From positions 20,512-84,511 of IMG/VR virus record IMGVR_UViG_3300010151_000009: 64,000 nt of DNA. One strand, written 5' to 3'. This DNA is from a virus. The notes beneath the pieces are model-generated. The model did not search any database, was not told the origin of the DNA, and saw only the letters and a list, made by a program, of their open reading frames with translations. The first letter of the stretch is position 1, and each line of letters starts with the position of its first letter. Made by a program: the position numbers and the translations under genes. Positions 44,089 to 45,789 of this stretch are shown here, piece after piece.

Positions 44089-44625
44089 TTAAGTATATTT
44101 AAAATATTTTATCTCATTTTTATATTTGTCCTTAACTATATTGAATAATTTAGGGGTATAACATTCTTTAATTTTAAGACTACATTCACCAGTAGATCCC
44201 TGTATAGGGAGTATAAATTTAGAAATATCTACCTCTTCACAAAAAGTATTAAAATCTTGTTGTAAATTATCAAAATTAATATACTTATTAACAATAACTT
44301 TATTGTCTATACTGAAATAATCAGTTAAAAGATCTTTGTCCATGCGATCAATATCTGTTCGATTAGTAATAAACTCTTCAAAAGACATTCCTTTATATTC
44401 ACGCTTAAAGAAACACCAATATGATAATAATCTTGACCATGGATTTCTTATAACCCCAAATATTTTATAATTAGAAAATTTTCCCTTCAAATGTTTTTTA
44501 TAAACAGCTATTGAACGATGATTACCTAAATGGTCTGCTAAATACTTATCTAATGCAAGTCTAAGAGTATTAGAAGCAGTTCTAGGAGGAGTTATTAAAA
44601 TAAATTTCTTTTTGTGACTAATCAT
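44089..44625 (-). CDS. Sulfotransferase family protein
   Basis: This 178-residue protein has TPPRTASNT at 12-20, the 5'-phosphosulfate-binding loop in place of a Walker A. It also has VIRNPWSRLLSYW at 58-70, the 3'-phosphate motif (RNP-x-x-R-x-x-S). These are the two hallmarks of PAPS-dependent sulfotransferases of the Sulfotransfer_2 type. Family members are usually 200-300 residues, so this one is short but keeps both sites. It may modify host surface glycans or a small molecule; the acceptor cannot be read. It overlaps the GroES-like gene by one base. Confidence 0.8.
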   Translation of the reverse strand: MISHKKKFILITPPRTASNTLRLALDKYLADHLGNHRSIAVYKKHLKGKFSNYKIFGVIRNPWSRLLSYWCFFKREYKGMSFEEFITNRTDIDRMDKDLLTDYFSIDNKVIVNKYINFDNLQQDFNTFCEEVDISKFILPIQGSTGECSLKIKECYTPKLFNIVKDKYKNEIKYFKYT

Positions 44626-44993
44626 TATCCTCTTTGTTTCATTTGTTTTATCTTCTGACGCATTTTATGGGGCATCTCTGGAGCATTGGGTTTTCCATCT
44701 TCACCACTATGATGTTTTTTCCCTTTCCATTTACCTAGTAATTGATGTTCACCTACTAATAAGTATTTTTTACCATCAATTTCTGTTTTAATAGCCTCTG
44801 TTCTTGGGTCTACCATTACCGTATCTCCAGTCTTAGTGAAAGTACAGTCTTTTCCAATGGCTATTACTTGTAATATATTAGATCGTGCAGCATTTGCTGC
44901 AGCTGTTGTCTCATCTAATATGATCCCTGATTCAGTTTCGTTAATTGTTGGGTCTGGAAGGACAACCCACGATCCATTTGGTTTGAATTTCAT
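44625..44993 (-). CDS. GroES-like co-chaperonin
   Basis: This 122-residue protein has a GroES core. It starts PNGSWVVLPDPTINETESGIILDETT, the usual start (V-x-P...ET-SGIIL) followed by the mobile loop region. Then come ILQVIAIGKDC, GDTVMVDPRTEAIKTEIDGKKYLLVGEHQLLGKW, matching the central barrel. A Lys/His-rich tail of about 30 residues follows. Phage co-chaperonins (such as T4 gp31) serve with host GroEL to fold the capsid protein, which suits its place as first gene of the morphogenesis operon. A strong host-type promoter sits 22-54 bases upstream. Confidence 0.8.
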   Translation of the reverse strand: MKFKPNGSWVVLPDPTINETESGIILDETTAAANAARSNILQVIAIGKDCTFTKTGDTVMVDPRTEAIKTEIDGKKYLLVGEHQLLGKWKGKKHHSGEDGKPNAPEMPHKMRQKIKQMKQRG

Positions 44994-45014: not shown

Positions 45015-45047
45015 CAAAGATATAAATTATTTTTTTATAAATCCAAA
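45015..45047 (-). promoter_or_regulatory. Bacteroidetes/Flavobacterium-type promoter of the morphogenesis operon
   Basis: On the minus strand TTTG (45047-45044) is followed after 21 bases by TATCTTTG (45022-45015), matching TTG-N17-23-TAnnTTTG. The start of the GroES-like gene lies 22 bases past the -7 box. No other gene begins between, so this promoter probably drives the packaging and head genes. Confidence 0.7.
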
Positions 45048-45116
45048 TATTATGACGAAAAGTTTATTAACAGTGAGAATTGGATATAACTTTCCCCCTT
45101 GATTTTCTATTTCAAA

Positions 45117-45326
45117 CTTGGATTTCACTCTAACAGTGCTCCTTTTTAAGGGACCCAAGGATAGTAAGACTGATGTTAATTCATCGCACATACCTATGTG
45201 CATTCTACCCTAATTAGAGCTTATACGCTCGTTCTTTTGCAACTACCGGAGAAAACTCTATCTCTATTTGAGACTACAATCCGATGTCTTTTCCCATTTT
45301 TGATTACCGTGGGATGATAATGTTGC
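45117..45326 (-). ncRNA. Structured non-coding RNA candidate, about 210 nt
   Basis: There is no credible reading frame here on either strand. Read on the minus strand, it folds by eye into three domains. Domain I is closed by GCAAC (45326-45322) with GTTGC (45243-45239). A hairpin GAGC/GCTC lies at 45230-45217. Domain II is closed by GGGTAG (45210-45205) with CTATCC (45164-45159) and holds two hairpins (45201-45186 with 6 pairs, 45185-45172 with 4 pairs). Domain III is closed by CTTGG/CCAAG (45159-45155 with 45121-45117) and also holds two hairpins (45152-45141, 45138-45126). A near-ideal promoter lies 5-34 bases upstream. It is not a tRNA and I match it to no known family; this is a manual fold. 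Confidence 0.55.
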
Positions 45327-45330
45327 GGTG

Positions 45331-45360
45331 CAAAAATAATAAAAATACTTTAAAAACAAA
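45331..45360 (-). promoter_or_regulatory. Flavobacterium-type promoter for the non-coding RNA
   Basis: On the minus strand TTTG (45360-45357) is followed after 18 bases by TATTTTTG (45338-45331), an exact match to TTTG-N17-23-TAnnTTTG. Transcription would start near 45326, right at the first paired base of the structured RNA. No gene lies between this site and the GroES promoter. Confidence 0.65.
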
Positions 45361-45380
45361 TTATTTCTAAAGTATTTTTA
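45340..45380 (-). terminator. 13-bp perfect inverted repeat after the small membrane-protein gene
   Basis: TAAAAATACTTTA (45340-45352) and its exact complement (45368-45380) flank a 15-base loop, 19 bases past the stop of the 74-aa gene. It is AT-rich, so as a terminator it is weak in stem strength, though followed on the minus strand by TTATTATTTTTG. It overlaps the promoter of the non-coding RNA, so termination and initiation may be linked. Confidence 0.5.
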
Positions 45381-45398: not shown

Positions 45399-45623
45399 TT
45401 ATTTCTGATCTACAAATTTAAATAAAATTAACAATGCTACTAAGCCTACAAAGCCGTTCTCGCCAAAGCAGCTAATAACATCCATTACATTAGCTATTAC
45501 ACTAATTCCAAATACTCCTCCCCCAAAAACAATTTCTGCCATTACTCCAAATGATACCATCACAAGAAATAAGTTAGTCATGTTCTTAAAAAAGTCTGTT
45601 GCATAATTAAATACTGTTTCCAT
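45399..45623 (-). CDS. Small two-span membrane protein
   Basis: This 74-residue protein has two membrane segments at about 15-45 (MTNLFLVMVSFGVMAEIVFGGGVFGISVIANV) and 55-70 (GFVGLVALLILFKFV), with a Gly-rich bend between. Similar short proteins with a GGGVFG...VI-N... centre and a GFVGLVAL end are frequent in marine phages, as I recall, without assigned function. A holin or membrane-associated early function is possible. It is the first minus-strand gene at the divergent junction and is separated from the head genes by the RNA candidate. Confidence 0.65.
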   Translation of the reverse strand: METVFNYATDFFKNMTNLFLVMVSFGVMAEIVFGGGVFGISVIANVMDVISCFGENGFVGLVALLILFKFVDQK

Positions 45624-45661: not shown

Positions 45662-45789
45662 CAAAAAAAATCTGACAAAAAAATTTTTTTAGGGGAAATC
45701 TGTGAACGTACGGGGGTACTAGGAACAACACCCCACCAAGTAATTAGGGTTTCGAGTACTCCACCCTATTTCATATTCAAAGAATATTA

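What the first reader, a model, noticed from the sequence alone, without database searches (positions are those of the whole stretch)
45117..45326. Uncharacterised multi-domain structured RNA at the divergent junction
About 210 gene-free bases fold by hand into a closed domain, a hairpin and two three-way junctions with seven supporting helices. A near-exact host promoter (TTTG-N18-TATTTTTG) ends 5 bases upstream of the first helix. It lies between the divergent control region and the GroES-led morphogenesis operon, a place where a regulator of the early-late switch could act. It does not look like tRNA, and I recognise no family.
Basis: partly seen in the sequence, partly recalled or inferred. 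Interest (0 to 1): 0.8.

Follow-up and report, generated by a model that had tools for sequence, protein, structure and literature searches.

The report
New structured RNA heading phage operons
A roughly 245-base folded RNA that is in no RNA database sits, right after a promoter, at the head of the virion-building gene block of this crAss-like phage, and the same RNA turns up in a human-gut crAss phage and in several phages with unrelated packaging proteins, so it looks like a widely shared but unknown phage regulator.

Summary
A structured RNA is encoded on the MINUS strand, about 45326 (5') to 45082 (3'). In 52 relatives, 45 pairs in 9 helices are 98.1% kept, 20 pairs change on both sides, and 0 of 500 shuffles match. 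A TAnnTTTG promoter element ends 4-5 nt before helix P1 in 73 of 74 relatives. Two covariance models find the RNA in over 140 viral loci, none in cellular control loci, and nothing in Rfam. The 5' domain also occurs in human-gut crAss phage cr118_1 (E 1e-6), upstream of GroES, and in phages with other terminase families, where sigma70-type promoters end just before P1. It is almost always the first element of an operon, usually the terminase/morphogenesis operon, with no conserved terminator and genes starting 10-40 nt after it. Best mechanism: a cis-acting leader that modifies the transcribing RNA polymerase (put-like antitermination), inferred, not shown. Rivals: trans-acting RNA, translational or stability leader, packaging RNA. 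The RNA family appears new.

The parts
45357..45360 (-). -33 TTTG box of the RNA promoter; lies in the loop of an AT-rich hairpin that probably ends the upstream transcript
   Evidence: sequence
45331..45338 (-). -7 box TATTTTTG (Bacteroidetes TAnnTTTG type), 4 nt before P1
   Evidence: TAnnTTTG 4-5 nt before P1 in 73/74 relatives, shuffled 0/74
45082..45326 (-). conserved structured RNA, about 245 nt (3' end approximate)
   Evidence: R1 hit corresponds to about 45232-45074 (own-genome coordinates 65594-65752), R2 hit 45328-45236
45239..45326 (-). 5' domain closed by P1 (45326-45322 with 45243-45239); inside: P3 UCCC/GGGA (45314-45311 with 45295-45292), P4 AUCGG/CCGGU (45285-45281 with 45249-45245), P5 GUCUC/GAGAU with AAAUA loop (45274-45270 with 45264-45260)
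   Evidence: P1 100% kept with all 5 pairs double-changed; P5 99.6% with 4 of 5 pairs double-changed; P4 invariant in type A
45114..45234 (-). Px, long-range helix GAAC (45234-45231) with GUUU (45117-45114), closing the 3' domain
   Evidence: of 85 scorable relatives 51 have GU/CA, 23 AC/UG, 2 GC/CG, 1 AU/UA, 8 unpaired; 85.8% of cells
45129..45218 (-). P7 UCUAAU (45218-45213) with GUUAGA (45134-45129)
   Evidence: 98.4% kept, 3 pairs double-changed
45158..45211 (-). P8 AGGGUAG/CUAUCCU (45211-45205 with 45164-45158) bearing P9 GCAC/GUGC (45201-45198 with 45189-45186) and P10 GAUG/CAUC (45185-45182 with 45175-45172)
   Evidence: 99.7%, 99.0% and 100% kept
45140..45153 (-). P11 variable hairpin UCC/GGA
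   Evidence: alignment A1; length varies, register not fixed
45082..45100 (-). 3' motif AAGGGGGAAAGUUAUAUCC; AGGG(G) kept across lineages; function unknown
45015..45047 (-). separate conserved promoter of GroES: TTTG (45047-45044) N21 TATCTTTG (45022-45015)
   Evidence: sequence and alignment
44625..44993 (-). GroES-like gene, start of the morphogenesis operon (then terminase, portal, capsid)
   Evidence: phrog_3188 E 1e-11, Cpn10
45341..45379 (.). AT-rich palindrome AAAATACTTTA...TAAAGTATTTT overlapping the RNA promoter; probable terminator of the upstream 74-aa gene
   Evidence: sequence; second inverted BLAST match in the own genome

Best explanation
It is the first ~245 nt of a transcript that starts at helix P1: a compact two-domain RNA that stays attached, as a 5' leader, to the mRNA of the phage's morphogenesis operon and acts in cis. 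The mechanism I think most likely is that the nascent RNA binds the host RNA polymerase that made it and keeps it resistant to pausing and termination along the very long operon, as HK022 put RNA does, with a quite different structure. Shown: the structure; the tight link of promoter and P1; its place as first element of an operon, usually the terminase/morphogenesis operon; no conserved intrinsic terminator; genes starting 10-40 nt after it in many relatives. Inferred: that it is expressed, stays on the mRNA, acts in cis, and acts on polymerase. Layered confidence: real functional RNA 0.97; 5' end at the transcription start 0.9; cis-acting leader 0.6; acts on polymerase 0.35-0.4.
For: Covariation. 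Promoter box 4-5 nt before P1 in 73/74 crAss-type RNAs; sigma70-type TTGnnn-N17/18-TATATT ending about 5-8 nt before P1 in 8/8 podovirus-type RNAs: two promoter types, same start. In 129 non-redundant contigs the GroES family is found only downstream, co-directional, in 111. In phages with other terminases (phrog_38, phrog_2) it is again upstream of and co-directional with the terminase genes. Genes begin 10-40 nt after the RNA model in about a quarter of contigs, between the RNA and the GroES promoter. T-runs of 5 or more follow in only 23 of 106. Terminator-like hairpins lie inside the operon on the same strand (28788-28770, 25658-25640; 12 found against 5.5 +- 2.2 in shuffles, both strands).
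Against: GroES has its own conserved promoter downstream of the RNA, so transcripts without the RNA probably exist. In L332 the RNA points away from the terminase genes, and in L434 and L437 the downstream genes are not morphogenesis genes. Gene order is conserved in these phages anyway, so synteny alone does not prove action in cis. No expression data. No resemblance to put beyond position.
Confidence: 0.38

Rival explanations
1. A trans-acting small RNA or RNP (for example one that binds a host or phage protein such as RNA polymerase, a nuclease or the ribosome). It has its own promoter and is trimmed or terminated near the AGGGG...UAUAUC motif.
For: Own promoter exactly at P1; GroES has a separate promoter; T-rich tract after a small hairpin in some relatives; a compact fold with invariant loops looks like a protein- or RNA-binding scaffold; in L332 it points away from the terminase genes.
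Against: No conserved terminator (23/106); genes start 10-40 nt after it in many contigs; the strand relation to the downstream operon is almost always kept.
Confidence: 0.3
2. A translational or stability leader or riboswitch that controls the first gene(s): it shields the mRNA 5' end, or opens and closes AAGGGGG as a ribosome-binding site.
For: Directly upstream of start codons in many contigs; AAGGGGG can pair with the 16S anti-Shine-Dalgarno with one G-U (inference); invariant loops could be a ligand pocket.
Against: The next gene varies (GroES, TerS, zinc-ribbon, LamG and others); in the window the GroES start is about 89 nt past the RNA and has its own promoter; no alternative terminator or sequestering helix is conserved.
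Confidence: 0.17
3. A packaging RNA (pRNA-like part of the terminase motor) or part of a packaging signal.
For: Near terminase genes in four terminase families (phrog_6681, 38, 9, 2).
Against: About 5 kb from TerL in the window; in the L329/L429/L431/L433 group and in L434 no terminase was seen nearby; the known pRNA is phi29-specific (own knowledge).
Confidence: 0.08
4. A DNA element (replication origin, early-promoter or pac cruciform) that only looks like an RNA.
For: It lies in the divergent intergenic region.
Against: G-U pairs are common and in places invariant (GU 39 of 52 at the base of P5, UG 52 of 52 in P4); a promoter points into it; strand-specific placement.
Confidence: 0.02

Closest known systems
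HK022 put RNA (PMC9378689)
   Same: Phage leader RNA at or near the 5' end of a long operon; putL lies just downstream of PL. Works in cis without phage protein.
   Different: put is ~70 nt with two stem-loops on early operons; this is ~245-300 nt, two domains, nine or more helices, mostly on late operons. Polymerase binding untested.
GOLLD and ROOL RNAs (PMC12286853)
   Same: Elaborate structured RNAs of phages and prophages, function unknown, recognised by covariation.
   Different: Those are much larger, lie near tRNA islands and have Rfam models; no Rfam model hits this RNA, and no tRNA is in the window.
phi29 pRNA
   Same: Phage RNA of comparable size, encoded near packaging functions in several lineages.
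   Different: No family match; no evidence for motor binding; terminases here are not phi29-like (own knowledge for phi29).
EAR and other long antitermination leaders
   Same: Multi-helix leader RNA in cis on a long operon (own knowledge).
   Different: Host operons; no Rfam match found here.
HMP2 candidate structured RNAs of human microbiomes (PMC8040213)
   Same: Catalogue of candidates found by comparison, some near phage domains in Bacteroidetes.
   Different: Main text has no crAss entry; supplements not available to compare, so an unnoticed overlap is possible.

Membership tests
Any Rfam 15 family | Covariance-model score at the gathering threshold | tested here: not met
   0 hits at gathering in the window; best E 2.4 in permissive mode for the window RNA; nothing at E<=1 for L041, cr118_1, L313 and L434
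tRNA / tmRNA | ARAGORN model | tested here: not met
   0 genes in the window
HK022 put RNA | About 70 nt, two stem-loops | tested here: not met
   Nine-helix structure; put description in PMC9378689
HK022 put RNA | At or near the start of an operon transcript, co-directional | tested here: met
   Promoter next to P1, 73/74; GroES operon downstream
HK022 put RNA | Binds RNA polymerase and suppresses termination | not testable with these tools
   Needs transcription assays
GOLLD/ROOL | Rfam model match; large size | tested here: not met
   No Rfam hit; ~245 nt
phi29-type pRNA | Part of the packaging motor | not testable with these tools
   Only adjacency to terminase genes seen
The family defined here | Match to independently built 5'-domain model R2 | tested here: met
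   Window RNA E 3.5e-15; R2 was built without the window or other type A members

The most novel reading that the evidence does not exclude
A new RNA class shared across unrelated tailed phages of at least two host promoter types, including a human-gut crAss phage, that acts in cis on host RNA polymerase to drive the virion-building operon: a third architecture for RNA-only antitermination after put and EAR.
Probability: 0.3. Interest if true: 0.93.

Novelty: categorically new. Interest (0 to 1): 0.85.

Why it matters
Late transcription of crAss-like phages, among the most abundant human-gut phages, is poorly understood, and few phage RNAs of this complexity are known. A covariation-proven RNA that recurs in phages with four different terminase families and two promoter types, beginning at the transcription start in each, points to a common, unrecognised step in phage gene expression or assembly. 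It gives a defined 245-nt object and two covariance models with which this can be tested directly.

Tried and rejected
Plus-strand RNA: z -1.55, no promoter at its 5' end; rejected. Known family: Rfam on five members, nothing. Cultured phages or plasmids by nucleotide similarity: none apart from cr118_1 matching itself and one chance 26-base match. Presence throughout Crassvirales: phi14:2, Fpv3, DAC15 and 16 gut genomes gave no hit, so it is not universal. Cellular occurrence: 27 cellular contigs matched a short pattern but none matched R1; 395 Bacteroidota genomes no R2 hit, a weak test because few candidates were scored. Direct pattern from cr118_1: 7 chance hits. Resemblance of P11 to the SRP RNA tip: dropped because AGCAC is not conserved (AGUAC, AGAAC in L018, L120). 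A pseudoknot between GUAUA and the 3' URURU motif is possible but the sequence is too simple to test. AAGGGGG as Shine-Dalgarno: start codon not at fixed spacing.

Full report
What was checked. The stretch 45117-45326 is free of genes on both strands apart from short chance ORFs. Rfam finds nothing at the gathering threshold in the window or at relaxed thresholds for this region and there is no tRNA.

Relatives and covariation. The downstream GroES gene led to 29 IMG/VR contigs. Their upstream regions align and show one conserved RNA. Pattern scans added more than a hundred contigs. Alignment A1 (52 sequences) folds into a consensus with 18 of 47 pairs changed on both sides. With a long-range helix that I added by eye (Px), 45 pairs in nine helices are kept in 98.1% of cells, 20 pairs have double changes, no shuffle of 500 equals this, and sliding the partner strand by one to three columns drops pairing to 33-48%. 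Px was checked separately: of 85 relatives that could be scored, 77 are complementary in four different combinations (51 GU/CA, 23 AC/UG, 2 GC/CG, 1 AU/UA), 8 are not. Px was derived by looking at the same sequences, so its count is not independent; a matching helix at the same place in the podovirus group (CCUUGU/ACAAGG and variants, just before UAUAA) supports it.

Architecture. The 5' domain is closed by P1 and holds P3, P4 and the P5 hairpin with loop AAAUA. In relatives of type B there is a further hairpin P2 and, inside P3, a small stem closed by a GNRA-type loop; in type C the P5 hairpin is replaced by a larger element. On type B alignment A3 24 pairs are kept at 98.2% with 11 double-changed pairs, and the minimum-energy fold of single members L140 and L433 gives the same helices without comparative information. 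The 3' domain is closed by Px and contains P7, from which P8 (with P9 and P10) and the variable hairpin P11 branch. The RNA ends near a conserved AAGGGGG...UAUAUC motif.

Start of the RNA. TAnnTTTG, the -7 element of Bacteroidetes promoters (own knowledge), ends 4 or 5 nt before P1 in 73 of 74 type A RNAs, against none in shuffled sequence. In the podovirus-like group the promoter is of another type, TTGnnn-N17 or 18-TATATT, and again ends about 5-8 nt before P1 in all eight inspected. Two different promoter types set to the same point is good evidence that transcription begins at P1. Expression itself was not tested.

Distribution. Covariance model R1 (3' domain) hits 141 viral loci and a further 15. 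None of 27 cellular contigs that carry a short pattern match R1. Model R2 (5' domain, built from type B only) recovers the window RNA at E 3.5e-15 and human-gut crAss phage cr118_1 at E 1e-6, at the homologous place upstream of the chaperonin gene; the cr118_1 region also folds unusually well (z -4.39). Nineteen other reference crAss-like genomes gave nothing. R2 also finds RNAs in phages that are not crAss-like: a podovirus-like group with TerL phrog_38, portal phrog_156 and TerS phrog_51, one with TerL phrog_2, one with TerL phrog_9 and portal phrog_12 (L332), and a group in which it leads structural and lysis-like genes (L329, L429, L431, L433). P1 differs completely among these lineages yet always pairs: ACUGGU/ACCAGU, GACAAU/AUUGUC, GGCAAU/AUUGCC, GAUGAU/AUCAUC, GUAUCC/GGAUAC. 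Hosts were not determined; that the sigma70-type promoters mean non-Bacteroidetes hosts is inference. The weakest of these R2 hits (L434, L436, L379; E about 1e-4 to 1e-3) rest partly on their conserved core and on the pattern that fetched them.

Context. In 129 non-redundant contigs of the crAss-type group the GroES family lies only downstream and co-directional (111 contigs), followed by the same small genes and the terminase. In about a quarter, one or more extra genes start 10-40 nt after the RNA model and sit between the RNA and the GroES promoter. A T-run of five or more follows the RNA in only 23 of 106, so there is no conserved intrinsic terminator. In the podovirus-like and phrog_2 groups the RNA again precedes the terminase genes on the same strand. 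The exceptions are L332, where it points away from the terminase genes, and L434 and L437, where the neighbours are a recombinase, a methyltransferase-like gene and a helix-turn-helix gene.

Mechanism. The features fit a leader RNA that starts at the first nucleotide, folds as it is made and stays on the transcript. HK022 put RNA is the best studied phage example of such an RNA acting on polymerase without protein (PMC9378689). Terminator-like hairpins inside the window's late operon give such an RNA something to act on. This step is inference. A trans-acting RNA is nearly as likely, because the GroES operon has its own promoter and L332 breaks the strand rule. A translational or stability leader and a packaging RNA are less likely.

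Novelty. No Rfam family, and no paper in the searches made, describes it. The supplements of the large candidate catalogues could not be read, so an unnamed entry there cannot be excluded. I rate the RNA family as categorically new; if the put-like mechanism is right, the mechanism would be a known kind in a new architecture.

Noticed in passing
window 45690-45760 (+): On the other side of the divergent junction there is a GC-rich element beside AAATTTTTTT (CTGTGAACGTACGGGGGTAC...CACCCC). Similar CACACGTTCACAGATT/CCCC elements occur at the same place in marine relatives, and CACGCACAACCCCTC elements in gut crAss phages.
   Followed up: no
L021, L024, L026, L130, L113, L122 and others: Type C relatives carry a different, larger element in place of the P5 hairpin of the 5' domain while the 3' domain stays the same, as if RNA modules had been exchanged.
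   Followed up: partly
window 45399-45623 (-): A 74-aa membrane-protein-like gene lies between the junction and the RNA, on the same strand; in most relatives the upstream neighbour is divergent instead.
   Followed up: partly
window 28788-28770 and 25658-25640 (-): Strong terminator-like hairpins lie inside the late operon, one just after the major capsid gene.
   Followed up: partly
window 44089-44625 (-): Gene with weak sulfotransferase similarity (Sulfotransfer_2, E 6e-4, below the curated cut-off) inserted between GroES and the next conserved gene.
   Followed up: no
L236 7591-8066 (NC_055891.1 12092-12567): Record cr60_1 annotates a tmRNA overlapping a tRNA-Leu; this looks doubtful.
   Followed up: no
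L434 (IMGVR_UViG_3300008110_010250): A member of the RNA family (R2 E 2.4e-4) lies near a tyrosine recombinase gene and a methyltransferase-like gene, so the RNA may also occur in integrative elements.
   Followed up: partly
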